From: Hesseltinella vesiculosa
Taxonomy: Eukaryota; Mucoromycota; Mucoromycetes; Mucorales; Cunninghamellaceae
NCBI GenBank assembly: GCA_002104935.1
Contig: MCGT01000008.1
Span: 372,001 to 436,000 of the forward strand
Direction of reading: 5' to 3'
DNA: 64,000 bases
In this document: in pieces, positions 25,756 to 57,018 of the stretch
How positions within the stretch are numbered: the stretch's first letter is position 1
How the letters are laid out: each line of letters starts with the position of its first letter
Notes under the pieces: model-generated
What the model was told of the DNA's origin: nothing
Databases searched by the model: none
The model's input: the letters and a program-made list of their open reading frames with translations, nothing else
Made by a program: the position numbers and the translations under genes

Positions 25756-27150
25756 CTACCAGTACTGCATACTGGTGCCTAGAACAAGTTCACGCTGGTT
25801 TTCCAAGAGGAGGGTGAGGGGCTCGTTGGCGCGGGCAGGCTTGTAGGCTTGGAGGGTGTGGTCAGTGATGTCGGGCCGGGCGAGGTCCTGAATTGGGCGT
25901 GTGGACGAGGTGTAGGTGCCATGCAAAAAGTCACTTTCGTAGTATCCGCGGACAAGCTTGAGATAAGATAGCCGAGGAAACAGGCTCAGGATGTCCTCCA
26001 CAAGAGCCAAGGGCGTGTGTTCAGGGAGCTCATGCAAGATGAGGCGGCTGATGCGCGACTTGGACGGCTGTGACTGGCGCTGAAAGGCAGCAAGGAGATA
26101 GTGGAGGACAGGGATGGACAGGCCGAGGTGCTGCAGCTGAGGAGCGTCCATGATCAATTGGTAAAGGGTCATGCCCTTTGCTTGGCTGGTGGGGGAGGGG
26201 GGCGAGAGTCGGATGTCTTGGTGCAGCTGAGAGCAGTAAGCAATGTCGAGGTATTTCCAGAAACGATGGTCCCACCGCTGCAGCGTGGCCAAGGAGATCG
26301 GGCTCGAAGCGACCCCAAACCAAGACAGGTGGGAACAGTAGCGGGCCAGCATGGTGAGGCCGGCTTCAGTGATTTTCCCGCAGCCGGCGAGGTCCAGCTC
26401 GGTCAAGTGGATTTTTCGAAATTTGGCAATGGCCACCAGGGCTTCGTCTGTCAGCGGGGTGTTTTTGAGAGAGAGCGAGTGGAGGTGGTCACAGTGGTAG
26501 GCCAGCTGGCCGACGCCATGGTCGACTTGGGTACCGTCCAGACGGATCAAGCACAGCTGAGGCAAGGCGGTAGCCAATTGAAGGAGCAGCGGGTCGGTCA
26601 TGTGCGCGACATGGGAGACGTCCAGGCTGGTGAGTCGGCTGAACTGCCAAGGGACCGGCGGCTGTATGTCTGTGCGGGGGAGATGGCTAAAGTCAAAAAA
26701 GGAGGCATGGGCGAGGTTGATGGTAAGGATGGCAGGTGTGTAGGCAATGAGGTCAGTGAAAAACGTCTTGGGCACCCGTTCGTACAAGGACTCGTGTATG
26801 TGGGTCAGTTGCAAATCACGGATGGTCTGGCGGGTGACTTGGCGCAGGCTGGGCAGGGCTTTCAGGAAGCGTTGGAGCAGCGTCAGACTGTCAAAGGTCG
26901 GGTGCGACTGAAACTGAGGACGCCGCCAAAGAAAGTCTCGAACGATCGGCTCGACTTGGGAGCAGGTGCATTGCAGTTCATGTAAGGACCAGCTGGGTAA
27001 AAAGGGTAGGACATGGCGGATGGCTCGTATTAATTGATCAAAGTGGTGCTGGGAGAGTTGGTTTTGCTCGGACAGGACAGGTGATGCAGGCGCACGGAAT
27101 GGATTGTAGGGCGATACCTTTTGCTGGAAAAACGTAGGATTCGACGTCAT
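25756..27150 (-). CDS. Leucine-rich-repeat protein, F-box/AMN1-like, intronless
   Basis: A single 464-codon frame. After a Pro-rich start there is a degenerate F-box-like region (HVLPFLPSWSLHELQCTCSQ), then cysteine-containing LRRs of the F-box/AMN1 type. Examples are LTSLDVSHVAHMTDPLLLQL, CLIRLDGTQVDHGVGQLAYH, LHSLSLKNTPLTDEALVAIA and LTELDLAGCGKITEAGLTML. Such proteins usually act as substrate receptors in SCF ubiquitin ligases or as mitotic-exit antagonists like Amn1; which applies here cannot be read. The lack of introns is unusual for this window. It is divergent from GPI8 with 243 bp between start codons. Confidence 0.8.
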   Translation of the reverse strand: MTSNPTFFQQKVSPYNPFRAPASPVLSEQNQLSQHHFDQLIRAIRHVLPFLPSWSLHELQCTCSQVEPIVRDFLWRRPQFQSHPTFDSLTLLQRFLKALPSLRQVTRQTIRDLQLTHIHESLYERVPKTFFTDLIAYTPAILTINLAHASFFDFSHLPRTDIQPPVPWQFSRLTSLDVSHVAHMTDPLLLQLATALPQLCLIRLDGTQVDHGVGQLAYHCDHLHSLSLKNTPLTDEALVAIAKFRKIHLTELDLAGCGKITEAGLTMLARYCSHLSWFGVASSPISLATLQRWDHRFWKYLDIAYCSQLHQDIRLSPPSPTSQAKGMTLYQLIMDAPQLQHLGLSIPVLHYLLAAFQRQSQPSKSRISRLILHELPEHTPLALVEDILSLFPRLSYLKLVRGYYESDFLHGTYTSSTRPIQDLARPDITDHTLQAYKPARANEPLTLLLENQRELVLGTSMQYW

Positions 27151-27393
27151 GATGGACGAATGGAGAAAAGAAGAATGGTGCAGGGAAAAAAAAAAAAAAA
27201 AAAAAAAAGGTTTGGTTCACATGCTGAGCCAAAAGAGCCAGAGAATCAGAGAAGCTGTCCTGTGACACCTGCAAACAAAAAAGGTGGATCAAGGTTCGCT
27301 TGGGTAGAACGATGGAATCAAAAGGAAAAAGAACAAAAAAGCGGAAGGTGCGCTCATTTTTTTTTTTCCTTTTTTTTTTTTCCTTCTTTGACT

Positions 27394-34217: not shown

Positions 34218-37200
34218 ATGTTTGAAGAAGTGAATTTTCCTCAAGATTGGTTTTATATCAAAAGTCATCAAAACGGCTATGTCTTGTCGATTGAAGACAG
34301 CTCCCATGCATCGGGCACTCCCATCGTGCTATCAGGATTGCGCACCAAGGATATGGATGGTCAGCTCTGGCGCATTGATGGTCATGGTCGCCTTGTGAAT
34401 AAAAAGACAAATCAAGTGATGGGTGTGGCCAACGGTAAGTCTTTTATTTGGGCAAGGACGTGTGTGTGAAAAAAAAAGGAGGCATCACAAAGCGGCAGGG
34501 TGGGATTATTTTTTTTTTTTTTGCTAACAGACGGGGTGCATTTTTATAGGCAAAGTCAAGGTTGGCACCGATGTGGTCCAACAAGTAGCAAGCTCGGTTT
34601 CGGACGACCCTCATCAAGCATTTGCCTTATCCAAGCAAGGCCATATTTATTTAAAGTCCCATGGTCAATTTGTCCTGGGCATCAAGGAATCCTTCTTTTC
34701 TCGTCGTGAAGGTCTTCACGTGCATCTGCAGTTGGCCGAAGCAAAACACTTGGATCGCAAGGAACAACGTTGGGAATTGGCCATCGCCATGGCCAGGGAA
34801 CCTTCTACCACCACGGTGCAAAGGAGCAGTAGCTCCGTCACCACCGGCACCTTGGATGGTAATGAAAAAAAAAAAAAAACAAGGGGGGCTATCGTGTTGA
34901 CTCGCTTTTTTTTTTTAGACACCCGATCGGTGGCCTCCAGCTTGGATGACGAAGGCGCCAGATCCGTGGTCACTGGTACTTTCCCTAATGGAGAGTTTTT
35001 CTTGAAATCTGTTTCAAGTGGACTCTACATCGGCCCTGATCAGGCCGAAGGCTCTGGCAGTCGCCTTGTGTTGGACAACTTTAGGAAATCCTTGTATGAC
35101 AGCCAGCTCTGGACACATGACGAAGCGACGGGTGCACTGATCAACAAGCGCTCTGGCCTGCTGCTCAGTGTCGATGCCCCCAACGGTCCATTGAAAGACG
35201 ATGCTCACGTGTCTCAACTCCCTCCCTCGCCAAGCACCCATCATCAAGAATGGGTCTGGTCCAAGACCGGCCAGCTTTACTTGAAGCACGATCCTTCCTG
35301 GGTATTGGGTTTCAAGGACAGCTGGTTTGGTCTCAACCGTGAAGGGGCTCATTTGTATTTGCAAAAGTTGAACAGCAAGCAACAAAATCTCCAAACCTTC
35401 CAAGTCGTGCTGCCTATTTTCAAGAAGCGTGAAGTGCAAAAGGAAAACTCCCTTGGCCAGTTCCCTGAAGGCTGGTTCTTTGTCAAGAGCCAAGCTCATA
35501 GCCTGGTCTTGACCGTCGAAGACTCCGGCGCCCTTGCTGCCTCGGTCATTTCCATGCCTCTCGACACTGGCAACTACTCTCGACAGCTGTGGAAATTCAA
35601 GGATGGGTACTTGATCAATAAGGCCTCGGAGATGGTGCTGGATATCAAGGGCGGTAAGTCCACCCCCTTTTCTTTTTTTTTTTTTTCTCGGCTGATTTTT
35701 TTTTTTCTAGGTGCCATCGCCACTGGCGCTGAGCTTTGCCAATACAACAAAAAGAAACGTGACAATGACAATCAACAATGGGGTCTCTACGGTGACGGTA
35801 GTATTTTTGTCAAGCACAAAAACTCCCTTGTACTGACTGTCCAAGAAAACGAAACCAAATTTTCAAAGGTGTATCTCGGAGACCGTCTTGTCAATGGTGC
35901 CAAGAATCAACGCTGGAACTTTGTGTTACCTGTGTTCAAGAAGAAACAAGGCAAGGAAGAAAAAAAAAATAGGTGTTTGTGTCCTCACTCCTTTTTTTCT
36001 TTTTCAATGAAGCTACTCGCACTGTGACCAAAACGGTTGTTAAAAAAGCGGTCATCCATCGTTATGCTCAATATCCTCGTGGCTGGTTCTTTATCCGCTA
36101 CTTTGCTCCCGGAGATTCAATGGACAGCCCAATGGTATTGGCCGCCCAGGGTGATCGACAAATCCTCCTTGCTGGTCTGGATCGCAAGGAATGGGCGAAT
36201 CAATTATGGACTTATTCTCAAGGCTCCTTGATCAATTACGGAACTCAGTTGGTGCTAAACGTGGATGGTACAGAAGTCAAAAGAACACGTGGTTCCAAAA
36301 AGGGAACCCAGCACGGCCTCGGAACCCTAAACCTAACTTGCTACTTTCCTTTTTTAGACCTCAAGGTTGGCGCAGCGGCTGTTCAAGCCAAACACCAACT
36401 CAAGGCCAAACATCAATGGTGGAGCTTGACCATCGATGGTCACCTTATCCAACAAGGCGAACCTACCCTCGCTTTGACCAACAAGGACGGTGCACTGGTT
36501 TTGACCCAAGTCGACGAGGCGACCCAACAGGCCCACCGCTGGGGTTTCGTTTTGCCGGAGTTCAAGTATGAAAACCGCCGGCAAGTCTTGCTTTCTTGGA
36601 AGATCGCCAACATTAAGGAATGGGTCCACTCCGGTGCTTCCATCCAAAAGGTCACTCCCAGCATCGCTCATTGGCCCGAAGAAGCCTTCTACATCTCTGC
36701 CGGCGACAAAGCCCTGGTCCCTGTCAAGGCCGAGTCCCACTCTCGATTGACCCTGCGCACCTTTTCTGTCAAGGATCATCAACTGTTCCAATGGATCTAC
36801 AAAAACGGCTACCTCGTCCACGTCGCCACCGGCCTTGTCCTGCATGCAGAAGGTAACCTCTTCCATTGCTCGACGGTTTCTCATTCCTCCTTTTTTTTCT
36901 TTCAGCCTTGGCCAACGGCACAGCTTTGGAAATCCGTGCTGAGAAACAAGGTAAGAATGGACGTGCTGACGATGCTCAGTTGTGGACCATTCGCACCGAT
37001 GGATCTATTGTGTCCAGCTCCTATGACTACCTCGGCCTGGGCGGGGAAAAAATCGTCGAACTCTATGACCTACGCAAGAGCCGTCAGCATACTGCTTGGA
37101 CCATCCTCTCTGGTCATTATGAAGAAAACGTCTTGGTGCGTTTCCGTCGTTACATTTTGATCATTGCCACTCAACGTATGCGAACGCGCCACTTCTGTCA

Positions 37201-40200
37201 CACTTCTCCAATCTCACCCCCTCTTTTTTTTTTTTTTTTTTTTTTTCCCTCCCCTCACCATCTAGGCACCTTGGTGAATCGTCAATTGGTCGTGAAAAAG
37301 GTCGGCGTGTTCCCCAAGGAATGGATCTTTATTCATTCAAAGCAAGACAAGAACCTGGTGCTCACCTCGGTCGATACCAAAAAGGGCTCCAAATTGATCT
37401 TGGCCAAGATGGACTTCAAGAACTACAAACGCCAGCTGTGGTACCCTCGTGACGATCAATGTCTGGTCAACTTTGCCTCGGATTTCGTGATCGATGTTGC
37501 CGGTGGCCAATTGTTTGCCGGAGCCAATGTGATTCAATGGAACGAAAAGTTCTTGCGCCGTAACCGTAAGAACCAAATGTGGGGCTTGACTGTGGACGGC
37601 CACATTCACCCCGACGCCCGCTCCGGTCTGGTGCTTTCGCCCAAGAAGAATGCTGCCAAGGAAGCGGTCGAATTGACGTTGGTGGCCCGTGGTGCTTTGG
37701 ATCGTACTGAGCAGCAATGGTCGTTCTCCCGCCCTGTGTTCCGCTCTGCGTCTGGTGCTGTTGTCAATGTCGGCCTGACCAACAAGTCCTCGGATCTCCG
37801 TGTGGAAGAGACCGCTGCCATCACCCTGACCTCGTCCGACCGTCAAGTGTACGAACGCACCGAAAAGAAGACCATCGTCCGCCGTTGGGGCGTCTTCCCT
37901 GAAGGTGACGTGTTTGTCCGTGTTGGCAAGGACCGTCTGGCTTTGACCGTCGAATCCTCGCCCTTGGCTGACCAAGTCCATCTGGTGACGCTGAAATCCT
38001 TGAACTTCCAAGACCACAAGTGGCAAATGTGGCACTACAAGGACAACCATTTGATCAACGCCCAAACCGGCCTTGCCCTGGACGTCGTTTCTTCCGACAA
38101 CCTTCGTTCTTTGGAAGTCGAACAAGGCTTGCAGTCGCCTCTTTGTGTGCGGGCCGTTTCCATGGAGGACAGCCAGTTCTTCGCCTTGGGCATTCATGGT
38201 GAAATCCACTGGCAATCCAACGTCCGCATGGTCGTGTCTGTCGCCAATCAGGATCGTGTTGTTGCCAACGGTGCCCAAATCGGTATCAAGGCCATCAAGG
38301 TGAACCGCAGTGCTCTTGGCGAAGGCAAGGAAGAAACCACCCTGGCTTCCGAAGATTGGATGCACTGGGCCTTTTCTCGACCCGTCTACAGTACCGTCAA
38401 ATCCGAATCCTCCACCGAAGTTGCCAGTGGAGCTGCTGCTGCTGCTGCCGTCATTGCTGGTGGTGCTGTGCTGGAAAGCCTTGAAGATGAACAGTTGGCC
38501 GTCAAGGAAGACGATGAATCCGCTGATGAGGCTTCCGACTCTGAAGACGAAGAGGAGGACGAAGATGAAGATATTGTCGAAGAAGAACAAGAAGCCGCTG
38601 AAAGTGTTGCTGAACAAGGCGAAGGTGTTGCTGAAGCCATGGATGAAAGTGTCACCTTGGAAGACATCAAGGTAATAGACATGATGGAAAAAAAAAAAAA
38701 AGTGGACATAAAAAAAAAGTGGACAAAAAAGGAAGAATAGAAAGCCCGCTCATTTTTTTCTTTTTCTTCCCCCCTTTTTTTTTTAACGCAATGGCATTGC
38801 CATAGAATGCATCTGCCATCTCATTGGAAATGAGCCACAGCATCCAAAGTACCGACAGTGGTGAAGAACATGAAGAAGTTGGCGGTGTGCTCAGGAAGAA
38901 GGAAAAGAGACGCTGGTCTCGTGGCGTGGAAAAGAAGTCTTCCTTTATCCTCCCTGACGGCTATGTGCCCACCGGCTTCGAAAAGATCGTGCGCTTCAAG
39001 GGCCATCAAGCTAGTTTCTTCCCCTCTGGTTACTTCTTCATCAAGAGTGAACTTCATGGCCTTGTCTTGGACGTCGAAAGCCAGCCAATTCAAGACAACT
39101 CGGGTGTCTCGCTCACCCGTCTCCGTTCCAGCGACTTCGCCAGCCAGCTCTGGTCCTACAAAGACGGCTTCTTGGTCAACTTGAAGGGCAACAAACTCGT
39201 GATGGATGCCTCTGCCGCTGCTGTCACCACCGCTGGTGAACGTGTGCACCTCTCCACTCGCAAAGAAAACAACGCCACCGACCAACAATGGGCCTGGGCC
39301 GTCGAAGGCTCCCTTTATCTCAAGTTGCGCCGTTCCTTGTTGCTTTCCGTCAAGGAGCTCAAGGCTTCTGCCTCTCACCAAAGCTTGCCTGTGTACCTCA
39401 TGGAACAAAAGGCCCATCCTGGCTCCAAATACCCTCGCCGTGAACAACGATGGGAAATCGTCGTGCCCAGCCTCATTCCTACCTCTGGCGAATCCTCTTC
39501 CTCTGGAACCAAGCTTGTGTTCCCCACCGCTGCTGCCGCCACTGCCGTCGCCACTGCCGGCCTCGGTGCCCTGTCCTTCAAGTGGCTCTCCAAGCTCCAC
39601 CGTCATCAACACGTGTCAGGCGATCTCAAGCAATACCAAGGCAAGTGGTTCATGATCAGCTATGGCCAAGACGCCAACCTGTTCCTTGCTGCCGGTGCCG
39701 ACAAGTCCCAGCCCGTCAGCCTCTCTGCTCTGTCTGAAGATGCCGATCACAAACGCTTCCTCTGGACCTTTGTCGATGGCTATTTGATCAACTACCGCTA
39801 CCTCCTTCGCTTGATCTACTGCCAAAAGAGTAAGCCTCGGGAAAAAAAAAAAAAGCACACCCGCTCACATTTCTAACTTCTTTTTTCGTCTTGTTTCAAG
39901 CTCGTCGTTGGCTCCTTGCTGATGCTTCAACCGAAGCTGACCAAACCTTTGCCATCAACGAACGTGGTGTTTTGACCCTTCGCATCAAGTCCATCTTGTA
40001 CTACATCTGGTTCACTAAGCGTGCTGGTGAAGAGCAAGAAGCATTGGCCTTGACCGAGAACGAAGAACAAGCTGCCCAGCAATGGACATGGCACACTGCC
40101 GCTTTGGCTGATGGTAATGCCACTCAAGAAGCCAGCGATGCTCTTACCAAGGCCAGCACATGGGCTACCGAACAAAAGCGTACCATCACCACGACCACGA

Positions 40201-41769
40201 CTACTTGGACCATCACTCGCCGTCGCGCTTTGTTCCCCACTGCTGCTCTGTTCTTTATCAAGTTCAAGGTGGACGGTCAAGAATACGTGTTGGCGCATGA
40301 CGAAGCCTCCAATGCCCTGGTCATCCAAAAGATCTCATTCGTCAAGTTCAAGCATCTGCTCTGGACATGGCGCGAAAACCGTTTGGTCAACTACGGCTCG
40401 TCTTTGACCATTGGTTTCAAGGGTAAAAAAAAAAAAAAAAAAAAAAAACCACGCAGCATCATAATAACGACATCGCCTTTTTTTTTTCTTTGCTGTAGAT
40501 AACAAGGCTGTGCTCGTGGATGCCAAGGATGGTTATGCCTGGAACTTGTCTGTTGATGGTCACATCCATACCGACGAAGCCACTGGTCTCTTTGTGTTTG
40601 CCCGCTCAGGCTCTGAAACCATCGACAACGAACAAGTGCATTTGGTTTCGGCCAGCGAAACGCTCGGCAAGCGTGCACTGATCCAATGGTCGTTCTCTTC
40701 TCCTGTGTTTGGCAAGCGTGCTGTTGCTGCTGGTGCCTCTGCCGAGGCTGTGGAAGAAACCATCGAATCTGTGGAAACTGTTGCCACGATTGAAACTGAA
40801 GCTCCTGCCTCTGACTCGCACATTGCCGAGACCGTGACCGCTGGCTTGGCTGTTGGCGCTGTGGTGAGACAGAAACGACCAAGGCTGTCAAGTCATTTTT
40901 TTTAACCTCCTCTTTCTCGCTTTTTTAAATCTATCGTAGGCTGCTGCTGATCAATTCAAGGACAACAAGATCACCACTGTTACCAATGTGCGTGAAACTG
41001 TTCGCACCTGGTGGTTGCGTGTGATTCGCATCGTTCGCACCAAGAAGGAGCAAGGAGAATCTGACGCTGACATTGCCAAGTACATGGATACTGAAAAGAC
41101 GGCCTTGTACGAACATCTCGACTGGTCTGTCAAGAACCACGGTGACAAGAAGGTCAGCGAAGAACTGGCTGTTGCTGTTCAGCAAAGCAAGGTTCTTGTT
41201 GGTGAACAAACCACTGAAGTGCACGGCATCATCAAGGGCAACGACAAGCAAGGTGCGGCCGACAAGCTTGATACTCTTAGCAAGGTGACTGAAGAAAAGA
41301 TCAAGGTTGTTGTGATCGCTGGCGAAAAGGTAGGCAAAAAAAATAATTGATAACAGAAAGGGTGAACTGACGTCAAATCTAGAAACCTGAACACGAACAC
41401 CATCACGTGTCTGCTGGTGAAGTTGTTGGTGGTATTGCCGCCGCTGGCGCTGCTGTGATTGCTGGTGGTCTTGCTCTTGAACACCACAAAGACAAGAAGG
41501 AAGCTGAAGCCAAGAAGAGTGAAGCTATTACCAAGACGACCACGACCACAACTACTTGGACCATCACTCGACGCCGTGCTTTGTTCCCCACTGCTGCTTT
41601 GTTCTTTATCAAGTTCAAGGTGGACGGTCAAGAATACGTGTTGGCGCATGACGAAGCCTCCAATGCCCTGGTCATCCAAAAGATCTCATTCGTCAAGTTC
41701 AAGCATCTGCTCTGGACATGGCGCGAAAACCGTTTGGTCAACTACGGCTCGTCTTTGACCATTGGTTTC

Positions 41770-41800
<31 letters not shown>

Positions 41801-44800
41801 CCACGCAGCATCATAATAACGACATCGCCTTTTTTTTTTCTTTGCTGTAGATAACAAGGCTGTGCTCGTGGATGCCAAGGATGGTTATGCCTGGAACTTG
41901 TCTGTTGATGGTCACATCCATACCGACGAAGCCACTGGTCTCTTTGTGTTTGCCCGCTCAGGCTCTGAAACCATCGACAACGAACAAGTGCATTTGGTTT
42001 CGGCCAGCGAAACACTCGGCAAGCGTGCACTGATCCAATGGTCGTTCTCTTCTCCTGTGTTTGGCAAGCGTGCTGGTGCTGCTGGTGCCTCTGCCGAGGC
42101 TGTGGAAGAAACCATCGAATCTGTGGAAACTGTTACCACGATTGAAACTGAAGCTCCTGCCTCTGACTCGCACATTGCCGAGACCGTGACCGCTGGCTTG
42201 GCTGTTGGCGCTGTGGTGAGACAGAAACGACCAAGGCTGTCAAGTCATTTTTTTTTAACCTCCTCTTTCTCGCTTTTTTAAATCTATCGTAGGCTGCTGC
42301 TGATCAATTCAAGGACAACAAGATCACCACTGTTACCAATGTGCGCGAAACTGTTCGCACCTGGTGGTTGCGTGTGATTCGCATCGTTCGCACCAAGAAG
42401 GAGCAAGGAGAATCTGACGCTGACATTGCCAAGTACATGGACACTGAAAAGACGGCCTTGTACGAACATCTCGACTGGTCTGTCAAGAACCACGGTGACA
42501 AGAAGGTCAGCGAAGAACTGGCTGTTGCTGTTCAACAAAGCAAGGTTCTTGTTGGTGAACAAACCACTGAAGTGCACGGCATCATCAAGGGCAACGACAA
42601 GCAAGGTGCGGCCGACAAGCTTGATACTCTTAGCAAGGTGACTGAAGAAAAGATCAAGGTTGTTGTGATCGCTGGCGAAAAGGTAGGCAAAAAAAATAAT
42701 TGATAACAGAAAGGATGAACTGACGTCAAATCTAGAAACCTGAACACGAACACCATCACGTGTCTGCTGGTGAAGTTGTTGGTGGTATTGCCGCCGCTGG
42801 CGCTGCTGTGATTGCTGGTGGTCTTGCTCTTGAACACCACAAGGAAAAGAAAGAAGCCGAAGCTGCCAAGAAGCCCGAAGTGATTGCTGAAAAGACATCA
42901 ACCACGATTGTGACAGAAGTCAAGGAAAAGCCCAAGGTACACCATCATAACTTTTTTTTTGACAGAAAAAGAATCATTTCCAAATTAACGCATATTATGT
43001 TTTTTAGGCTGCTGTGATTGTTGAAGAAGTCAAGAAGTCTGAAGTTGTTGTTGTTGGTGATGCCAAGAAGCCTGAACACGAACACCACCATGTGTCTGCT
43101 GGCGAAGTTGTTGGTGGCATTGCTGCCGCTGGCGCTGCCGTGATTGCTGGTGGTCTTGCTCTTGAACACCACAAGGAAAAGAAGGAAGCCGAAGCTGCTG
43201 AGAAGAAAGAAGCTGAAACTACTGCTCTTGTGTCAGTTGGTCAAGTCCAAGACACCGTTCGTGTGTGGTGGTTGCGCATCATTGATTCTGTTCGCTTCAA
43301 GAAGGAACAAGGTGTGCCTGACGAAGAAATTGTCACGTACATTGAAACCGAAAAGACAACGCTGTATGGCCAATTAGACAAGTCTGCCAAGAATGGCGAC
43401 AAGAAGGTTGCTGAAGAATTGGCTGTTGCTATTGAACAAAGCAAGGTCCTTGTTGGAGAACAAACCATTGAAGTGCACGGCATTATTTCTGGCAGCGACA
43501 AGAAGTCAGCTGCTGACAAGCTTGCTACACTCAGCAAGGTGACTGAAGAAAAGATCAAGGTAGTTGTGATTGCTGACGAAAAGGTAAGAAAAATCGGAGT
43601 GAGAAATACAAAAACTCAACGTAAATTTTCAATAGCCCAAGCACCACGTGTCTGCTGGTGAAATTGTTGGTGGCATTGCCGCTGCTGGCGCTGCCGTGAT
43701 TGCTGGTGGTCTTGCTCTTGAACACCACAAGGAAAAGAAAGAAGCTGAAGCTGCCAAGAAACCCGAAGTGATTGCTGAAAAGACATCTACCGCGATTGTG
43801 ACAGAAGTCAAGGAAAAGCCCAAGGTAAACCACCGCTGCTTTTTTTTTAGAAAAAGAATCATTTCCAAATTAACGCATATTATGTTTTTTAGGCTGCTGT
43901 GATTGTTGAAGAAGTCAAGAAGTCTGAAGTTGTTGTTGTTGGTGATGTCAAGAAGCCTGAACACGAACACCACCATGTGTCTGCTGGCGAAGTTGTTGGT
44001 GGCATTGCTGCCGCCGGTGCCGCCGTGATTGCTGGTGGTCTTGCTCTTGAACACCACAAGGAAAAGAAAGAAGCCGAAGCTGCCAAGAAACCCGAAGTGA
44101 TTGCTGAAAAGACATCTACCGTGATTGTGACTGAAGTCAAGGAAAAGCCCAAGGTAAACCACCATAACTTTTTTTTTGATAGAAAAAGAATCATTTCCAT
44201 ATTAACGATTGTTATGTTTTGCAGGCTGCTGTGATTGTTGAAGAAGTCAAGAAGTCTGAAGTTGTTGTTGTTGGTGATGTCAAGAAGCCTGAACACGAAC
44301 ACCATGTGTCTGCTGGCGAAGTTGTTGGCGGTATTGCCGCTGCTGGCGCTGCCGTGATTGCTGGTGGTCTTGCTCTTGAACACCACAAGGAAAAGAAGGA
44401 AGCCGAAGCTGCCAAGAAACCCGAAGTGATTGCTGAAAAGACATCAACCGCGATTGTGACAGAAGTCAAGGAAAAGCCCAAGGTAAACCACCACTGCTTT
44501 TTTTTTAGAAAAAGAATCATTTCCAAATTAACGCATATCATGTTTTTTAGGCTGCTGTGATTGTTGGTGATGCCAAGAAGCCTGAACACGAACACCACCA
44601 TGTGTCTGCTGGCGAAGTTGTTGGTGGCATTGCTGCTGCTGGTGCCGCCGTGATTGCTGGTGGTCTTGCTCTTGAACACCACAAGGAAAAGAAAGAAGCC
44701 GAAGCTGCCAAGAAACCCGAAGTGATTGCTGAAAAGACATCTACCGCGATTGTGACTGAAGTCAAGGAAAAGCCCAAGGTACACCACCGCTGCTTTTTTT

Positions 44801-47800
44801 TTTTTTTGGAAAAGAATCATTTCCAAATTAACGCATGTTATGTTTTTTAGGCTGCTGTGATTGTTGAAGAAGTCAAGAAGTCTGAAATTGTTGTTGTTGG
44901 TGATGCCAAGAAGCCTGAACACGAACACCACCATGTGTCTGCTGGCGAAGTTGTTGGTGGCATTGCTGCCGCTGGTGCTGCCGTGATTGCTGGTGGTCTT
45001 GCTCTTGAACACCACAAGGAAAAGAAGGAAGCCGAAGCTGCCAAGAAACCCGAAGTGATTGCTGAAAAGACATCTACCGCGATTGTGACAGAAGTCAAGG
45101 AAAAGCCCAAGGTAAACCACCATAACTTTTTTTTTGATAGAAAAAGAATCATTTCCATATTAACGATTGTTATGTTTTCCAGGCTGCTGTGATTGTTGAA
45201 GAAGTCAAGAAGTCTGAAGTTGTCGTTGTTGGTGATGTCAAGAAGCCTGAACACGAACACCACCACGTGTCTGCTGGCGAAGTTGTTGGTGGCATTGCTG
45301 CCGCTGGTGCCGCCGTGATTGCTGGTGGTCTTGCTCTTGAACACCACAAGGAAAAGAAGGAAGCTGAAGCTGCCAAGAAGCCTGAAGTGATTGCTGAAAA
45401 GACATCTACCACGATTGTGACAGAAGTCAAGGAAAAGCCCAAGGTAAACCACCATACCTTTTTTTTTGATAGAAAAAGAATCATTTCCATATTAACGCAT
45501 ATTATGTTTTTTAGGCTGCTGTGATTGTGGAAGAAGTCAAGAAGTCTGAAGTTGTCGTTGTTGGTGATGTCAAGAAGCCTGAACACGAACACCACCATGT
45601 GTCTGCTGGCGAAGTTGTTGGCGGTATTGCCGCTGCTGGCGCTGCCGTGATTGCTGGTGGTCTTGCTCTTGAACACCACAAGGAAAAGAAGGAAGCCGAA
45701 GCTGCTGAGAAGAAAGAAGCTCAAACTACTGCTCTTGTGTCAGTTGGTCAAGTCCAAGACACCGTTCGTGTGTGGTGGTTGCGCATCATTGATTCTGTTC
45801 GCTTCAAGAAGGAACAAGGTGTGCCTGACGAAGAAATTGTCACGTACATTGAAACCGAAAAGACAACGCTGTATGGCCAATTAGACAAGTCTGCCAAGAA
45901 TGGCGACAAGAAGGTTGCTGAAGAATTGGCTGTTGCTATTGAACAAAGCAAGGTCCTTGTTGGAGAACAAACCATTGAAGTGCACGGCATTATTTCTGGC
46001 AGCGACAAGAAGTCAGCTGCTGACAAGCTTGCTACACTCAGCAAGGTGACTGAAGAAAAGATCAAGGTAGTTGTGATTGCTGACGAAAAGGTAAGAAAAA
46101 TCGGAGTGAGAAATACAAAAACTCAACGTAAATTTTCAATAGCCCAAGCACCACGTGTCTGCTGGTGAAATTGTTGGTGGCATTGCCGCTGCTGGCGCTG
46201 CCGTGATTGCTGGTGGTCTTGCTCTTGAACACCACAAGGAAAAGAAGGAAGCTGAAGCTGCCAAGAAGCCTGAAGTGATTGCTGAAAAGACATCTACCAC
46301 GATTGTGACTGAAGTCAAGGAAAAGCCCAAGGTAAACCACCACTGCTTTTTTTTTTAGAAAAAGAATCATTTCCAAATTAACGCATATTATGTTTTTTAG
46401 GCTGCTGTGATTGTTGAAGAAGTCAAGAAGTCTGAAGTTGTTGTTGTTGGTGATGCCAAGAAGCCTGAACACGAACACCACCATGTGTCTGCTGGCGAAG
46501 TTGTTGGTGGCATTGCTGCCGCCGGTGCCGCCGTGATTGCTGGTGGTCTTGCTCTTGAACACCACAAGGAAAAGAAAGAAGCCGAAGCTGCCAAGAAACC
46601 CGAAGTGATTGCTGAAAAGACATCAACCACGATTGTGACAGAAGTCAAGGAAAAGCCCAAGGTAAACCACCATAACTTTTTTTTTGATAGAAAAAGAATC
46701 ATTTCCATATTAACGATTGTTATGTTTTGCAGGCTGCTGTGATTGTTGAAGAAGTCAAGAAGTCTGAAGTTGTTGTTGTTGGTGATGTCAAGAAGCCTGA
46801 ACACGAACACCATGTGTCTGCTGGTGAAATTGTTGGTGGCATTGCCGCTGCTGGCGCTGCCGTGATTGCTGGTGGACTTGCTCTTGAACACCACAAGGAA
46901 AAGAAAGAAGCCGAAGCTGCTGAGAAGAAAGAAGCTGAAACTACTGCTCTTGTGTCAGTTGGTCAAGTCCAAGACACCGTTCGCGTGTGGTGGTTGCGCA
47001 TCATAGATGTGGTTCGCTTCAAGAAGGAACAAGGTGTGCCTGATGAAGAAATTGTCTCGTACATTGAAACCGAAAAAACAACGCTGTATGGCCAATTAGA
47101 CAAGTCTGCCAAGAATGGCGACAAGAAGGTTGCTGAAGAATTGTCTGTTGCTATTGAACAAAGCAAGGTGCTTGTTGGAGAACAAACCACTGAAGTGCAC
47201 GGCATTATTTCTGGCAACGACAAGAAGTCAGCGGCTGATAAGCTTGCTACACTCAGCAAGGTGACTGAAGAAAAGATCAAGGTTGTTGTGATTGCTGACG
47301 AAAAGGTAAGAAAAATCGGAGTGAGAAATACAAAAACTCAACGTAAATTTTCAATAGCCCAAGCACCACGTGTCTGCTGGTGAAATTGTTGGTGGCATTG
47401 CTGCCGCTGGTGCTGCCGTGATTGCTGGTGGACTTGCTCTTGAACACCACAAGGAAAAGAAAGAAGCTGAAGCTGCCAAGAAGCCTGAAGTGATTGCTGA
47501 AAAGACATCAACCGCGATTGTGACTGAAGTCAAGGAAAAGCCCAAGGTAAACCACCGCTGCTTTTTTTTTTAGAAAAAGAATCATTTCCATATTAACGAT
47601 TGTTATGTTTTGCAGGCTGCTGTGATTGTTGAAGAAGTCAAGAAGTCTGAAGTTGTTGTTGTTGGTGATGTCAAGAAGCCTGAACACGAACACCATGTGT
47701 CTACTGGTGAAATTGTTGGTGGCATTGCCGCTGCTGGCGCTGCCGTGATTGCTGGTGGACTTGCTCTTGAACACCACAAGGAAAAGAAGGAAGCTGAAGC

Positions 47801-50800
47801 TGCTGAGAAGAAAGAAGCTGAAACTACTGCTCTTGTGTCAGTTGGTCAAGTCCAAGACACCGTTCGCGTGTGGTGGTTGCGCATCATAGATGTGGTTCGC
47901 TTCAAGAAGGAACAAGGTGTGCCTGATGAAGAAATTGTCTCGTACATTGAAACCGAAAAAACAACGCTGTATGGCCAATTAGACAAGTCTGCCAAGAATG
48001 GCGACAAGAAGGTTGCTGAAGAATTGTCTGTTGCTATTGAACAAAGCAAGGTGCTTGTTGGAGAACAAACCACTGAAATGCACGGCATTATTTCTGGCAG
48101 CGACAAGAAGTCAGCTGCTGACAAGCTTGCTACACTTAGCAAGGTGACTGAAGAAAAGATCAAGGTAGTTGTGATTGCTGACGAAAAGGTAAGAAAAATT
48201 GTAGCGAAGAATACTAGAACTCAACGTTAATTTTCAATAGCCCAAGCACCACGTGTCTGCTGGTGAAATTGTTGGTGGCATTGCCGCTGCTGGTGCCGCC
48301 GTGATTGCTGGTGGTCTTGCTCTTGAACACCACAAGGAAAAGAAAGAAGCTGAAGCTGCCAAGAAACCCGAAGTGATTGCTGAAAAGACATCAACCACGA
48401 TTGTGACTGAAGTCAAGGAAAAGCCCAAGGTACACCACCGCTGCTTTTTTTTTTTTTTTGGAAAAGAATCATTTCCATATTAACGATTGTTATGTTTTGC
48501 AGGCTGCTGTGATTGTTGAAGAAGTCAAGAAGTCTGAAGTTGTTGTTGTTGGTGATGCCAAGAAGCCTGAACACGAACACCACCATGTGTCTGCTGGCGA
48601 AGTTGTTGGTGGCATTGCCGTTGCTGGTGCCGCCGTGATTGCTGGTGGTCTTGCTCTTGAATACCACAAGGAAAAGAAAGAAGCTGAAGCTGCCAAGAAA
48701 CCCGAAGTGATTGCTGAAAAGACATCAACCACGATTGTGACTGAAGTCAAGGAAAAGCCCAAGGTACACCACCGCTGCTTTTTTTTTTTTTTTGGAAAAG
48801 AATCATTTCCATATTAACGATTGTTATGTTTTGCAGGCTGCTGTGATTGTTGAAGAAGTCAAGAAGTCTGAAGTTGTTGTTGTTGGTGATGCCAAGAAGC
48901 CTGAACACGAACACCACCATGTGTCTGCTGGCGAAGTTGTTGGTGGCATTGCCGTTGCTGGTGCCGCCGTGATTGCTGGTGGTCTTGCTCTTGAATACCA
49001 CAAGGAAAAGAAAGAAGCTGAAGCTGCCAAGAAACCCGAAGTGATTGCTGAAAAGACATCAACCACGATTGTGACTGAAGTCAAGGAAAAGCCCAAGGTA
49101 AACCACCGCTGCTTTTTTTTTTAGAAAAAGAATCATTTCCATATTAACGATTGTTATGTTTTGCAGGCTGCTGTGATTGTTGAAGAAGTCAAGAAGTCTG
49201 AAGTTGTTGTTGTTGGTGATGTCAAGAAGCCTGAACACGAACACCACCATGTGTCTGCTGGCGAAGTTGTTGGCGGTATTGCCGCTGCTGGCGCTGCCGT
49301 GATTGCTGGTGGTCTTGCTCTTGAACACCACAAGGAAAAGAAGGAAGCCGAAGTTGCTGAGAAGAAAGAAGCTGAAACTACTGCTCTTGTGTCAGTTGGT
49401 CAAGTCCAAGACACCGTTCGTGTGTGGTGGTTGCGCATCATTGATTCTGTTCGCTTCAAGAAGGAACAAGGTGTGCCTGACGAAGAAATTGTCACGTACA
49501 TTGAAACCGAAAAGACAGCGCTGTATGGCCAATTAGACAAGTCTGCCAAGAATGGCGACAAGAAGGTTGCTGAAGAATTGGCTGTTGCTATTGAACAAAG
49601 CAAGGTGCTTGTTGGAGAACAAACCACTGAAATGCACGGCATTATTTCTGGCAGCGACAAGAAGTCAGCTGCTGACAAGCTTGCTACACTTAGCAAGGTG
49701 ACTGAAGAAAAGATCAAGGTAGTTGTGATTGCTGACGAAAAGGTAAGAAAAATTGTAGCGAAGAATACTAGAACTCAACGTTAATTTTCAATAGCCCAAG
49801 CACCACGTGTCTGCTGGTGAAATTGTTGGTGGCATTGCCGTTGCTGGTGCCGCCGTGATTGCTGGTGGTCTTGCTCTTGAACACCACAAGGAAAAGAAAG
49901 AAGCTGAAGCTGCCAAGAAACCCGAAGTGATTGCTGAAAAGACATCAACCACGATTGTGACTGAAGTCAAGGAAAAGCCCAAGGTAAACCACCGCTGCTT
50001 TTTTTTTTAGAAAAAGAATCATTTCCATATTAACGATTGTTATGTTTTGCAGGCTGCTGTGATTGTTGAAGAAGTCAAGAAGTCTGAAGTTGTTGTTGTT
50101 GGTGATGTCAAGAAGCCTGAACACGAACACCACCATGTGTCTGCTGGCGAAGTTGTTGGCGGTATTGCCGCTGCTGGCGCTGCCGTGATTGCTGGTGGTC
50201 TTGCTCTTGAACACCACAAGGAAAAGAAGGAAGCCGAAGTTACTGAGAAGAAAGAAGCTGAAACTACTGCTCTTGTGTCAGTTGGTCAAGTCCAAGACAC
50301 CGTTCGCGTGTGGTGGTTGCGCATCATAGATGTGGTTCGCTTCAAGAAGGAACAAGGTGTGCCTGACGAAGAAATTGTCACGTACATTGAAACCGAAAAG
50401 ACAGCGCTGTATGGCCAATTAGACAAGTCTGCCAAGAATGGCGACAAGAAGGTTGCTGAAGAATTGGCTGTTGCTATTGAACAAAGCAAGGTGCTTGTTG
50501 GAGAACAAACCACTGAAATGCACGGCATTATTTCTGGCAGCGACAAGAAGTCAGCTGCTGACAAGCTTGCTACACTTAGCAAGGTGACTGAAGAAAAGAT
50601 CAAGGTAGTTGTGATTGCTGACGAAAAGGTAAGAAAAATTGTAGCGAAGAATACTAGAACTCAACGTTAATTTTCAATAGCCCAAGCACCACGTGTCTGC
50701 TGGTGAAATTGTTGGTGGCATTGCCGCTGCTGGTGCCGCCGTGATTGCTGGTGGTCTTGCTCTTGAACACCACAAGGAAAAGAAAGAAGCCGAAGCTGCC

Positions 50801-53800
50801 AAGAAACCCGAAGTGATTGCTGAAAAGACATCAACCACGATTGTGACTGAAGTCAAGGAAAAGCCCAAGGTAAACCACCGCTGCTTTTTTTTTTAGAAAA
50901 AGAATCATTTCCATATTAACGATTGTTATGTTTTGCAGGCTGCTGTGATTGTTGAAGAAGTCAAGAAGTCTGAAGTTGTTGTTGTTGGTGATGTCAAGAA
51001 GCCTGAACACGAACACCACCATGTGTCTGCTGGCGAAGTTGTTGGCGGTATTGCCGCTGCTGGCGCTGCCGTGATTGCTGGTGGTCTTGCTCTTGAACAC
51101 CACAAGGAAAAGAAGGAAGCCGAAGTTGCTGAGAAGAAAGAAGCTGAAACTACTGCTCTTGTGTCAGTTGGTCAAGTCCAAGACACCGTTCGTGTGTGGT
51201 GGTTGCGCATCATTGATTCTGTTCGCTTCAAGAAGGAACAAGGTGTGCCTGACGAAGAAATTGTCACGTACATTGAAACCGAAAAGACAGCGCTGTATGG
51301 CCAATTAGACAAGTCTGCCAAGAATGGCGACAAGAAGGTTGCTGAAGAATTGGCTGTTGCTATTGAACAAAGCAAGGTGCTTGTTGGAGAACAAACCACT
51401 GAAGTGCACGGCATTATTTCTGGCAGCGACAAGAAGTCAGCTGCTGACAAGCTTGCTACACTTAGCAAGGTGACTGAAGAAAAGATCAAGGTAGTTGTGA
51501 TTGCTGACGAAAAGGTAAGAAAAATTGTAGCGAAGAATACTAGAACTCAACGTTAATTTTCAATAGCCCAAGCACCACGTGTCTGCTGGTGAAATTGTTG
51601 GTGGCATTGCCGTTGCTGGTGCCGCCGTGATTGCTGGTGGTCTTGCTCTTGAACACCACAAGGAAAAGAAAGAAGCTGAAGCTGCCAAGAAACCCGAAGT
51701 GATTGCTGAAAAGACATCAACCACGATTGTGACTGAAGTCAAGGAAAAGCCCAAGGTAAACCACCGCTGCTTTTTTTTTTAGAAAAAGAATCATTTCCAT
51801 ATTAACGATTGTTATGTTTTGCAGGCTGCTGTGATTGTTGAAGAAGTCAAGAAGTCTGAAGTTGTTGTTGTTGGTGATGCCAAGAAGCCTGAACACGAAC
51901 ACCACCATGTGTCTGCTGGCGAAGTTGTTGGCGGTATTGCCGCTGCTGGCGCTGCCGTGATTGCTGGTGGTCTTGCTCTTGAACACCACAAGGAAAAGAA
52001 AGAAGCCGAAGCTGCTGAGAAGAAAGAAGCTGAAACTACTGCTCTTGTGTCAGTTGGTCAAGTCCAAGACACCGTTCGTGTGTGGTGGTTGCGCATCATT
52101 GATTCTGTTCGCTTCAAGAAGGAACAAGGTGTGCCTGACGAAGAAATTGTCACGTACATTGAAACCGAAAAGACAACGCTGTATGGCCAATTAGACAAGT
52201 CTGCCAAGAATGGCGACAAGAAGGTTGCTGAAGAATTGGCTGTTGCTATTGAACAAAGCAAGGTGCTTGTTGGAGAACAAACCACTGAAGTGCACGGCAT
52301 TATTTCTGGCAGCGACAAGAAGTCAGCTGCTGACAAGCTTGCTACACTTAGCAAGGTGACTGAAGAAAAGATCAAGGTAGTTGTGATTGCTGACGAAAAG
52401 GTAAGAAAAATCGGAGTGAGAAATACAAAAACTCAACGTAAATTATCAATAGCCCAAGCACCACGTGTCTGCTGGTGAAATTGTTGGTGGCATTGCAGCC
52501 GCTGGCGCTGCTGTGATTGCTGGTGGCCTTGCTCTTGAACACCACAAAGAAAAGAAAGAAGCTGAAGCTGCCCAGAAGTCTGAAGTGATTGCTGAAAAGA
52601 CATCAACCACGATTGTGACTGAAGTCAAGGAAAAGCCCAAGGTAATGAAAAAATATGCAAAGTTCTAGTAGATTATCGTGTCTCACTTTATATGTTTCAA
52701 GCAGACTCTTACCGTTGCTGAAGACCTCAAGGTTGTTGGTGATGTTAAGAAGCCTGTGCATCACACAATTGCAGGTGGAATTGCGTCTTCTACAACTGCA
52801 GTCATTGGCGAAGCGATGACTTTTAAGCATGTCAAGGACAAGAAAGGGAGTTCTACTTCAGGATCTGAAATTGCCATCTCAACCGAAGAAGAAGTCATGG
52901 ACACTGTTATTGGAAATGTAAGTTTTGCCTTCAAAGCTGGGAACGTAGCCATTAATTCCCCCCCCCCCCCTCCCTAGGTCCCATCCAAGAAGAGCGATCA
53001 AATTGTCACCGTACTCCCAATTGCTGCCAGCACCGACAGCGGTGCTGTTTTGGAAGTTGTCGAAAAGACAAGACAAGAGTCATCTGCCTGGTACTTGCGT
53101 TTGATTGTCCGCATCAAGGAAATCGTGTCCCAAGGTGGCGCTGATGTCAAGGAAAAGGTTGATGCTGCTGTGAGCGAAGCTGATCAAGAACTCGTGTTTG
53201 TCTTGGAAAAATCTAAGCTTGAAGGCAAGGCTGATGTGGCCAAGGTTGACTCGGTGCTGACTCCTATCAAGCTGTCTCTACAAGAACAATTGCATGCTAT
53301 CAAGGCGTCCAACGAATCGAAGGATCACGCTAAGATTTTGGCTGTCTGTGAAGCCGGTCAAATGAGTGTCGACACTACCTTCAAGGAAGCTACCGAAAAG
53401 GTTACCCCCAAGCAAGGTAAGGGATAAAGCAAAGGTTGGATGCACAATGGCCAGGTTCTAATTTTATCATTTTTAATCATAGACGCCAAGCACGAAGGTC
53501 TTAGCGACAAAGCCAAGGCTGCCTTGGGTTTGGGCGCTGTCATCGCTGGAGGAGCTGCCATTGCTCATCACGAACACAAGAAGCATGAAGCGGAAGCTGC
53601 CCCCAAGGATGAAACCGTGATTGTCGTCGTTGAGAAGGTCGACGATGTCAAGATTACTGAAGTCAATGACAAATACCACAGCTGGTGGCTGATTTTGATT
53701 GAGAAGATTTTGGCTCGTGTGAACCAAGGTGGCGAAAAGGTGGAAGAAGACGTGGCTGCTCTGATCGCTGAATCCCAAGAGAAACTCAAGAGCGATATCG

Positions 53801-55485
53801 GCAGCGTCAAGACCATCGTGTCTACCGAAGATAAGCCGGCCGACGACAAACAACGCGGCTCCTTTGGCGATTCTTTGTCCTGGCTTGTCTTACTTGCTGG
53901 TACCCAAGCCGGCCAAATCAAGTCTATTGTGTCTCAGTACGCTAAATCTGACAAGAAGAACAAGGCTGACCTCGAGAAGCAACTCAACAACGTTGCCAGT
54001 ATCTCCGAAGTACAAGCTAACACTGTCCTTGTTTCTCACACTCATGATCATGTGCAACCTGTCATTGTTCCCGTCACCACGACCAAGGAAAGTCTCGAAA
54101 TCCAAACCTCCAAGTCCCTTGCCCCTGTTGTTGAATCCCAGGGTGTGCTGATCTACGGCTGGTTCGACGTTCTATTTGCAAAATTGAAGAACCTCTCTGC
54201 CAACAAATCGACTATCGAAGAAGAAGACGTGCGCGCTATCATTGTTCCTGCTCAAACCGAGCTCGATAGCATCATTGTCAATGCCAAGAAGGAAGTCATC
54301 CAATCGACCACCTTCCCCATCGATCAGCAATCCGATATTTCCAACGCTGCATTGGTGCTCAATTCCCAAAAACAAGCTGCCGATAGCTTTGATGGCATCA
54401 ACACCCTCATTGCTGCCCAATTGGCTGCCATCTTGGCCCTGTCCAAGGTAAGAAAAAAAAAGTCAGGAAGTAGACAGTCTGCTCATTTTTTTTTTTTTTT
54501 TTGATAATAGGAAACCAATGACACGAAAGAATGGAATGACCGCGCTACCTGGATCGTCGGTCGAGCCAAGCAACACGCTGAACAATCTCTCCAACACACA
54601 ACTGAATCTGCTGTTGGTGTCGCTTTCGAAGGCAAGGCTGTGACCTGGGTTGAAACTGCACATGTGCCCGAAACCTTTGGATCTGTCAAGACTGTTGTCA
54701 TTGACATCGTTGGCACGGTGTTGGACTTGGAAGGTTCGCTCTTCAGAGCTTGGAAGGCTATTGCCGACAAGAAACAAGGAACCCTCCTTAAGATCGACGG
54801 TGCTGCTTTAGTCCACGACTGGTATGAACGCTTTGTAGCTGAAAAGCAAAAACTTGTGGCCAAGAAGCAACGTGCCATCCAAGATGCCATTGTGATCCGT
54901 GAAACTTTGATCGCCGTGTTGAAACATCACAAGGTCGACTGCTTGATCCAAAAGGAGGACATCGACGCCCTTGTCCGTACCTGGGATCGCTTGGATGTGT
55001 TTGGTGATGTCGTCGCAAGTGTGCGCCAACTGAAGCAAAAGGGTCATGTCTTTACCGTGGCTCTTTCACCTGTGCTGTCCACTCGCACTATGATGTCCAA
55101 TGCCCGCCACAATTGTCTCTGCTGGCACTCGCAAATCTCGTCGGATGCACTGACCTTGAATGCTGAAGACGATACTTTGGCCTCTGCTGCTGTCGATACT
55201 GCCAAATCCTTGTTGGCCTATGATAACGCTGACGAATTGGCCCTTGTCTCTGCTCATCCCTTGGCGTTGCAAGCCAGTCAAAAGTTAGGTGCTCACACGA
55301 TCCTTGTTGCCCGTGACACCAGCAAACCTATTGACCATTCCATCGCTGAAGTGTCGTACGACGGTCTCGATGTTCTCGCCGAAAGCTATCAAACCTTTGT
55401 GGAACACGAACACGCCAGCCAAAAGCAGCCCACCCGCTCTTGGTTCCAACGCGTTGTTGACACTGCCTCTTACTACTTTGAATAG
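34218..55485 (+). CDS. Giant modular protein (6,111 aa): beta-trefoils, exon-array zipper repeats, HAD C-terminus
   Basis: I joined 44 exons by hand; phases agree throughout, giving 6,112 codons with the stop. Residues 1-2300 hold eleven ricin-B-like beta-trefoils (strands such as GWFFVKS, QLWKFKDGYLIN, QQWGL, QRWNFVLPVFK with QxW signatures). A 60-residue Asp/Glu-rich linker lies near residues 1250-1305. Residues about 2526-5247 come from 24 phase-0 array exons. Each has the zipper-like segment GGIAAAGAAVIAGGLALEHH; most also have a His cluster EHEHHH, and eight have a Trp-rich helical module (VRVWWLRIIDSVRFKKEQG). Residues 5320-5790 hold divergent helical modules. The end (about 5845-6085) is a degenerate haloacid-dehalogenase domain (VVIDIVGTVLD). 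There is no signal peptide. Function unknown; a very large structural or scaffold protein is the simplest inference. A split into several genes is possible but no internal stop or poly(A) signal demands it. Confidence 0.8.
35951..36012 (+). other. GC-AG intron in the giant gene
   Basis: Exon 4 ends ...AAGAAACAAG and the intron starts GCAAGG, ending TTTTTCAATGAAG. Using this rare GC donor joins CAA-G to CT-ACT and keeps phase 1. The only nearby GT donor (near 35973) leaves the wrong phase and hits a stop shortly after. Confidence 0.65.
40190..42870 (+). repeat. 1,352-bp tandem duplication inside the giant gene
   Basis: Two adjacent copies (about 40190-41520 and 41540-42870) span the end of one exon, two full exons, their introns and the start of the next. 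Exons at 40499-40863 and 40940-41329 recur at 41851-42215 and 42293-42682. Copies differ at only a few positions in coding sequence, and introns are conserved including their A and T tracts. Each copy contributes one trefoil, one Trp-rich helical module and one zipper segment. The breakpoints fall in Thr-codon repeats (ACC/ACG/ACA/ACT) in both exons. Confidence 0.88.
42736..52641 (+). repeat. Tandem exon array (25 zipper-bearing exons, 886-bp higher-order unit)
   Basis: Exon types: B (usually 261 nt), B' (189 nt, begins CCC-AAG-CAC-CAC) and BC (576 or 573 nt, B plus the Trp-rich module). After the leader exon 42736-42936, BC exons start at 43008, 45515, 46733, 47616, 49167, 50053, 50939 and 51825. 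Each is followed by a B' exon about 628 nt after the BC start. Extra B exons start at 43893, 44225, 44551, 44851, 45183, 46401, 48503 and 48837. BC-B' pairs recur every 886 bp at the 3' end; B units recur every 326-334 bp. All introns are phase 0 and fall into two sequence classes. The exon at 44551 lacks 11 residues found in the others. Confidence 0.92.
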
Positions 55486-55614: not shown

Positions 55615-56912
55615 CTAGAGTAGCAAAACAGGCGTTTCGATAAATCTCACGGGCTTGAGCCCAAGCCGGCGCCGGTCTAGCAGCCACTGGTCCAAGATGA
55701 CCTGCTTGAACATAGGGTTGATGCCTGAGCCTGAGATATCGAGGGTATCTAAAGAGGGGCAGCCAGAAACGATGTGTCTAATGCCTTGCTCGTTCACCTG
55801 GTTGAGGAAGGCCAAGGACATGTAGACGAGACGAGGACAGCCTGAGGCAAGAGGAGCTAGAGATTCGTTTGTCACTCGCCAGCACCGTACAAGGTGTAGC
55901 AGGCGAAGGTGAGAGCAGTGTCGGGAAATCGAGAGTACTGTAGCATCGGTGATATTGTACAGGGATCCAAGGCGAAGGTGAGTGAGGCTAGAGCTCCAAT
56001 TCGGCAGCGCTTGTTCCAGGCACGAGTCGTCAATGAAGCCTGAAAACGAGAGGTCGAGGTGTGTAAGCTGGGAGGCGCCTGACGTCTGCCTTCGTCGGAT
56101 TTCAGCATTAACAAATGTCTTCCATCCAAGAGCCGTGATATTTCGTGTTAGATCCAACCAGAGACCTCTCATCGATCGGTCGCCTTGCTCGTTCCTGCTG
56201 GCAGACAAAGCATACATTGTAGCGTCACCTATTTGACTACACTGTAAAGAACATAAAAAGTCAGTCCTGTCCAACAACAAAAGATAAATAAATTAAAAAT
56301 AAAAAAAAAATAAACACTTACACCAGAGGCGCAGAGATAGACTAGGCGACAGCATCGATCGACTGCCATGGCCATATCTCGATCAGAGACTTTGGCCAGC
56401 CACTCCGCCGTTTTGACGGTCGTGTCTAGTTCACCATAGTTTTCTTCGTGGATATTGTTTGCGCTGTCACACAGAAGCCGCTCCAAACCAGTGTTGTCTA
56501 AATCGACGGGTTGAACACGGATGTAGCCTTGGGCAGCAACATCAGGATCTGTCTTGAAGCTGTTGGATTGGAGGCCACTGCGAGGCGCCAGCCGTGGGGA
56601 GGGACGTAAAACCAGGGATTGAACTCGCTCGAGCCAAACACAATCCTTGTTAACGCAATACTGAATAAAGCTTTCCCAATGAGTAAGCGTTCGAATATAG
56701 ACGTGAGTGTAGAGCAGTCCATTTGCCACAGCGTTCCATTTTCGAGAGACAAAAGATACTTGAGCCAGGCAAGATCGCGGAAGATGGGTAAAGATCCTTT
56801 CTATCAATTCAGCAGGTAGGTCTAATGTTCTAGAAGTTGCTGGCAAGGTGCATTCGTTAGTGGTATTCAAGAGTTCCAGTCGATTGTCATTGGTGAGATA
56901 TAAAAAGCGCAT
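55615..56912 (-). CDS. F-box/LRR protein
   Basis: Two exons, split by an intron at about 56242-56320, encode roughly 405 residues. An F-box follows the N-terminus: LDLPAELIERIFTHLPRSCL then AQVSFVSRKWNAVANGLLYT, a good match to the Skp1-binding consensus. The second exon has cysteine-containing LRRs (LTHLDLSFSGFIDDSCLEQA, LRLLHLVRCWRVTNESLAPL, LDTLDISGSG). It is probably a substrate receptor of an SCF ubiquitin ligase. The chosen start (MRFLYLTND) avoids a poly-Phe stretch encoded by an A run; an upstream in-frame ATG exists at 56966. It is convergent with the giant gene. Confidence 0.83.
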
Positions 56913-57018
56913 TGAGGGTAGGCGAAGAAAGGAAGAGCGGACGAAAAAGAAAAAAAAATTCGTCATCGCAGCATTGAGACGGCCTTAGCGACCGACCGAC
57001 CGACCCCTGGGGAAAATC

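What the first reader, a model, noticed from the sequence alone, without database searches (positions are those of the whole stretch)
34218..55485. A 6,111-residue protein combining beta-trefoils, zipper arrays and a HAD domain
Forty-four exons fit one frame with every splice phase agreeing. The order is eleven ricin-B-like trefoils, an acidic linker, an array of His-rich Gly/Ala zipper segments with Trp-rich helical modules, then a degenerate dehalogenase domain. I know of no characterised protein with this order. Size and repetitiveness recall tethering proteins such as leashin of Ascomycota, but no sequence similarity is claimed. A structural role (septum, spore, membrane or cytoplasmic scaffold) is inference.
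Basis: partly seen in the sequence, partly recalled or inferred. Interest (0 to 1): 0.92.

Follow-up and report, generated by a model that had tools for sequence, protein, structure and literature searches.

The report
Giant fungal wound-sealing (Gellin-type) protein
The gene encodes a giant cell-interior protein whose relatives occur across mould fungi of the order Mucorales and most likely turn leaking cell contents into a gel when a hypha is cut; this species has greatly multiplied one sticky, water-avoiding segment of it.

Summary
The gene is real. One + strand gene, 34218-55485, with 44 exons and 43 introns in consistent phase, encodes 6,110 residues plus stop.

It has relatives. Twenty homologues, 19 of them named and from 14 genera of Mucorales, match residues 1-1260 at 41-51% identity. 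In 16 of 20, ten trefoil segments were detected, the first nine in the same order. The eleven here are ten plus a roughly 1.35-kb tandem duplication of the tenth (97.5-100% identical pieces). Trefoil 1 matches PDB 6LCI. The Trp-rich module, predicted as four helices, occurs in 18 of 20. The C-terminal HAD domain is in 3 of 20, with two catalytic positions lost in all four copies aligned.

Best explanation (0.87): an orthologue of the Gellins, Mucorales proteins that gel cytoplasm on wounding. That name rests partly on recall; the defining paper is not held. The lineage-specific part is an array of 26 near-identical Gly/Ala zippers under purifying selection: 27 Gly/Ala/Ser-rich hydrophobic segments here against 0-4 in each of 20 homologues. 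The claim that no characterised protein has this order looks wrong for the family.

The parts
34218..55485 (+). whole gene, 44 exons, 6,110 aa + stop
34236..34797 (+). beta-trefoil 1 (exons 1-2), matches PDB 6LCI 'mdaA-1 domain'
34981..35430 (+). beta-trefoil 2
35461..35934 (+). beta-trefoil 3
35951..36012 (+). intron 4, GC-AG
36072..36608 (+). beta-trefoil 4
36672..37174 (+). beta-trefoil 5
37310..37750 (+). [not shown]
37895..38389 (+). beta-trefoil 7
38417..38476 (+). Ala/Gly hydrophobic segment after trefoil 7
38531..38808 (+). acidic linker between trefoils 7 and 8 (spans an intron)
   Evidence: sequence; acidic stretches also seen in P0019 and P0020
39019..39483 (+). beta-trefoil 8
39634..40097 (+). 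beta-trefoil 9 (divergent)
40233..40791 (+). beta-trefoil 10
40964..41305 (+). Trp helical module 1
41407..41481 (+). first Gly/Ala zipper
41584..42143 (+). beta-trefoil 11, tandem duplicate of trefoil 10
42317..42658 (+). Trp helical module 2 (duplicate of module 1)
42736..52641 (+). array of 25 of the 26 Gly/Ala zippers and Trp modules 3-10 in phase-0 exons
53044..54447 (+). three divergent Trp helical modules (11-13)
54670..55392 (+). degenerate HAD (haloacid dehalogenase-type) domain
55393..55482 (+). C-terminal tail, RSWFQRVV stretch shared with Sporodiniella P0018

Best explanation
This is the Gellin orthologue of a Mucorales fungus: a protein of roughly 670 kDa (110 Da per residue) that stays dispersed in streaming cytoplasm and, when a cut hypha discharges its contents, assembles into a gel that traps organelles and stops the loss. 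Shown here: gene structure, homology across Mucorales, the ten-trefoil order, the shared helical modules, a HAD domain without two catalytic residues (by alignment), and a zipper array of this genome under purifying selection. Inferred from recalled work on the family: some trefoils unfold under flow and form sheets, and hydrophobic motifs bind membranes. Inferred for this species: the 26 His-flanked zippers act as many membrane-binding or self-associating stickers, spaced by helical bundles that may extend under force, so the gel gains valency; the HAD domain serves as a binding or dimerising fold, not an enzyme.
For: Twenty homologues, 41-51% identical where aligned to residues 1-1260; all 14 named genera are Mucorales. 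Sixteen of 20 have ten trefoil segments, the first nine in fixed order; the tenth place matches t10/t11 best in 14 and t4 in 2. Recalled abstract of Nguyen et al. 2021: Gellins have ten related trefoils. PDB 6LCI, 'Solution structure of mdaA-1 domain', released 2020-11-25, is nearly identical over about 195 residues to the start of a Mucor ambiguus homologue and matches trefoil 1 here at 7.5e-56. A passage of PMC12712441 says that Mucorales have Gellin proteins that give protoplasmic gelation and that these were not detected in Glomeromycotina. Trp module in 18 of 20 homologues; no reversed-sequence decoy passed E 1e-4. Three own-genome searches matched only this gene (capped candidate lists). 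The start reads FPQDWFYIKS without a hydrophobic leader, and 17 of 20 homologues start with the same kind of motif.
Against: The Gellin paper is not held, so its sequences and domain description were not compared; the link 6LCI = Gellin is inferred from release date and recall, and the entry title does not name Gellin. HAD was found in only 3 of 20 homologues (9 of 20 are named partial; P0010 and P0016 are not, and end differently). Nine of 20 homologues, Phycomyces P0003 and Sporodiniella P0018 among them, have no Gly/Ala/Ser-rich hydrophobic segment by my cut, so that feature is not family-wide as measured. The window's zipper profile hit none of the 20. The zipper was not modelled with confidence, and of five models of that exon three had mean pLDDT under 50. 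No expression, localisation or gelation data.
Confidence: 0.87

Rival explanations
1. A cytoplasmic tethering or septal scaffold comparable to ascomycete leashin, with no flow-driven gelation.
For: Size, repetitiveness and modular order suit a tether.
Against: Closest relatives found are Mucorales proteins of the ten-trefoil family, whose recalled function is gelation; Mucoromycota are described as aseptate (passage of PMC10023807).
Confidence: 0.06
2. Two or more neighbouring genes (trefoil protein, zipper-array protein, HAD protein) read as one.
For: No transcript data; very long gene; 9 of 20 homologue models are named partial.
Against: Frame and phase agree through 43 introns; three homologues hold trefoils, helical modules and HAD in one annotated protein; a search with the C-terminal 863 residues, limited to proteins of 0.55-1.75 times that length, found no match at E <= 0.001 among 7,995 candidates.
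Confidence: 0.04
3. The length of the zipper array is partly an assembly artefact; the true protein has fewer or more copies.
For: Neighbouring module exons are up to 99.3% identical and some introns 100%.
Against: Copies are distinguishable: two intron types about 83-85% alike and different exon lengths.
Confidence: 0.15
4. A sugar-binding lectin acting on cell-wall or foreign glycans.
For: Ricin-type Pfam families above cut-off in two of four trefoil-bearing exons tested; 19 QxW motifs in residues 1-2330.
Against: No N-terminal hydrophobic leader by eye in the window or in the 17 of 20 homologues with a comparable start; the array and HAD are not lectin parts; the trefoils differ strongly from one another. 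Sugar-binding residues were not tested.
Confidence: 0.04

Closest known systems
Gellins of Mucorales (Nguyen et al. 2021 Curr Biol, doi 10.1016/j.cub.2020.10.016; not held, abstract recalled)
   Same: Mucorales; ten related beta-trefoils in one large protein; hydrophobic motifs; no secretion leader seen
   Different: Tenth trefoil duplicated; 26 near-identical zippers and 13 Trp helical modules; 6,110 residues, 1.48 times the longest of the 20 homologues (1,765-4,121 aa, nine named partial). What the paper says of the part after the trefoils is unknown to me
PDB 6LCI, mdaA-1 domain
   Same: Same position and fold type as trefoil 1; 7.5e-56
   Different: A single isolated domain from a Mucor-type protein
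Haloacid dehalogenase-type HAD enzymes (8wmt, 3umg)
   Same: Sequence similarity over about 215 residues, best 1.4e-10; nucleophile Asp and motif II Ser kept
   Different: Motif III Lys and motif IV Asp missing in the window and in 3 of 3 homologues with the domain: probably not an active enzyme
Leashin and septal plugging proteins of Ascomycota
   Same: Recalled: large wound-sealing components
   Different: No similarity tested; different lineage

Membership tests
Gellin | ten related beta-trefoil domains in one protein (feature recalled) | tested here: met
   ten types in order plus one duplicate; ten segments in 16 of 20 homologues
Gellin | present across Mucorales | tested here: met
   19 of 20 homologues named, 14 genera, all Mucorales; 1 unnamed
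Gellin | absent outside Mucoromycota | tested here: inconclusive
   no other group among the 20 hits, but the search was limited by length and to the 7,986 candidates sharing most words
Gellin | hydrophobic motifs that bind membranes (feature recalled) | tested here: inconclusive
   27 segments here at mean hydropathy >= 1.6 over 19 residues; none in 9 of 20 homologues; binding not testable
Gellin | direct similarity to the published Gellin sequence | tested here: inconclusive
   paper not held; indirect link through 6LCI and a Mucor homologue
Gellin | flow-induced gelation; bleeding on loss of function | not testable with these tools
   needs wet work
Ricin-type beta-trefoil (R-type) fold | trefoil fold with QxW repeats | tested here: met
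   fold predicted for trefoils 6 and 7 only
HAD hydrolase, active enzyme | motif I Asp, II Ser/Thr, III Lys, IV Asp (motif set recalled) | tested here: not met
   I and II present, III and IV missing in 4 of 4 sequences aligned
Leashin | sequence similarity to leashin | not tested
   no leashin sequence used

The most novel reading that the evidence does not exclude
In this lineage a wound-gelling protein has shifted its chemistry: a recently amplified, homogenised array of 26 His-flanked Gly/Ala zippers separated by Trp helical bundles forms a second, pH- or force-responsive multivalent gelling engine beside the ancestral trefoil sheets, giving a natural sequence series (0-4 against 27 stickers) for testing how valency sets the speed of protoplasmic gelation.
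Probability: 0.25. Interest if true: 0.65.

Novelty: new variant of a known kind. Interest (0 to 1): 0.42.

Why it matters
Coenocytic fungi must stop leaks without septa. A Gellin-type protein that has expanded one motif from a few copies to 26 while keeping the ten trefoil types is a natural experiment on which parts set gel strength and speed, and a template for flow-responsive materials. It also suggests that a Trp helical module, and in some species a HAD fold with missing catalytic residues, are lasting parts of this family.

Full report
What is there. A dynamic-programming path through the + strand gave an open frame from 34218 to 55485. After moving four donors to the repeat register and adding one intron and choosing the GC-AG form of intron 4, the model has 44 exons and 6,110 residues plus stop. 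Introns 1-7 are phase 1 and all introns after exons 14-41 are phase 0, so whole array exons can be duplicated without breaking the frame. Coding status is supported by homology over residues 1-1260 and by pooled pN/pS of 0.23 (eight module exons, last 165 codons each) and 0.07 (26 zippers, 33 codons each).

Family. The search with residues 1-1260 scored the 7,986 candidates sharing most words and returned 20 proteins. Nineteen carry names, from Apophysomyces, Phycomyces, Parasitella, Mucor, Gilbertella, Choanephora, Benjaminiella, Rhizopus, Pilobolus, Spinellus, Cokeromyces, Backusella, Sporodiniella and Absidia, all Mucorales. Sixteen of 20 have ten trefoil segments; P0014 (9, short model), P0017 (9), P0019 (7) and P0020 (5) have fewer. 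In Phycomyces P0003 the tenth is partial. The eleven here are ten plus a tandem duplicate: seven pieces compared, exons and introns, are 97.5-100% identical.

Helical modules and zippers. Exon 17 (43008-43583), folded with nine other copies, gave in the best of five models an unconfident zipper stretch (residues 1-70 under pLDDT 50) followed by four helices mostly above 70; mean pLDDT of the five models was 65.0, 64.1, 47.9, 47.4 and 43.1. An iterated profile found 13 such modules here and 1-9 in each of 18 of 20 homologues; P0014 and P0019 gave none; no reversed sequence passed E 1e-4 in any round, the best decoy being 0.0034. The exact zipper appears 26 times here. By hydropathy, Gly/Ala/Ser-rich segments number 27 here and 0-4 in the 20 homologues, none in nine of them. 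Module exons are 95.8-99.3% alike in the 13 of 28 pairs printed; the introns after them fall in two types, 98-100% alike within a type and 83-85% between types, which suggests recent unequal exchange or conversion.

HAD domain. The last exon matches PF00702 (9.9e-07) and haloacid dehalogenase-type structures (best 1.4e-10). The domain ends Phycomyces P0003, Backusella P0017 and Sporodiniella P0018, 3 of 20. The nucleophile Asp and motif II Ser are kept; the Lys of motif III and Asp of motif IV are not, in all four sequences. The motif set is recalled.

What it most likely does. I recall that Nguyen et al. 2021 describe Gellins: Mucoromycota proteins with ten related trefoils, some unfolding to sheets under flow and some with hydrophobic membrane-binding motifs, whose loss causes bleeding from cut hyphae. 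That paper is not held. What I saw: passages of PMC12712441 (Mucorales Gellins give protoplasmic gelation; not detected in Glomeromycotina) and of PMC10023807 (aseptate Mucoromycota show protoplasmic gelation), and one reference-list passage of PMC11842775. None of these passages mentions trefoils. The number and order of trefoils, the clade, and a solved first domain released in the month the paper is recalled to have appeared agree. I therefore file the gene as a Gellin orthologue at 0.87 and not higher.

What is new. The 26-fold zipper array and duplicated tenth trefoil are seen only here among the 21 sequences compared, nine of which are named partial. Whether they matter for gelling is untested. 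Listings from ten searches of the held library showed no description of such an array, but the main paper is outside that library and few papers were opened.

Noticed in passing
11789-11860 (-) and 12397-12468 (+): Two tRNA-Gln (ttg) genes in opposite orientation about 540 bases apart.
   Followed up: no
P0019 (Absidia repens): The homologue's annotated model carries PF06985 and matches trefoils 3-9 only, probably a fused or broken gene model.
   Followed up: partly
P0010 (Mucor mucedo) and P0020 (unnamed): Long homologues with eight and nine Trp helical modules and a similar C-terminal part without a detected HAD domain; possibly a second subfamily.
   Followed up: partly
P0003 (Phycomyces) and P0018 (Sporodiniella), after the trefoils: Each has its own different repeat array in the same place (EGVKPT-type and TAHVTDEV-type), so repeat growth between trefoils and HAD may recur independently (by eye).
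   Followed up: partly
4204-5109 (+), 8235-9362 (-), 18931-19788 (-), 20448-21389 (+), 23108-23830 (-): Neighbouring ORFs match an alpha/beta hydrolase, cytochrome P450, TauD dioxygenase, amidohydrolase and polysaccharide deacetylase.
   Followed up: no
56232-56984 (-) and 25759-27216 (-): An F-box protein just downstream on the other strand, and an LRR protein upstream.
   Followed up: no
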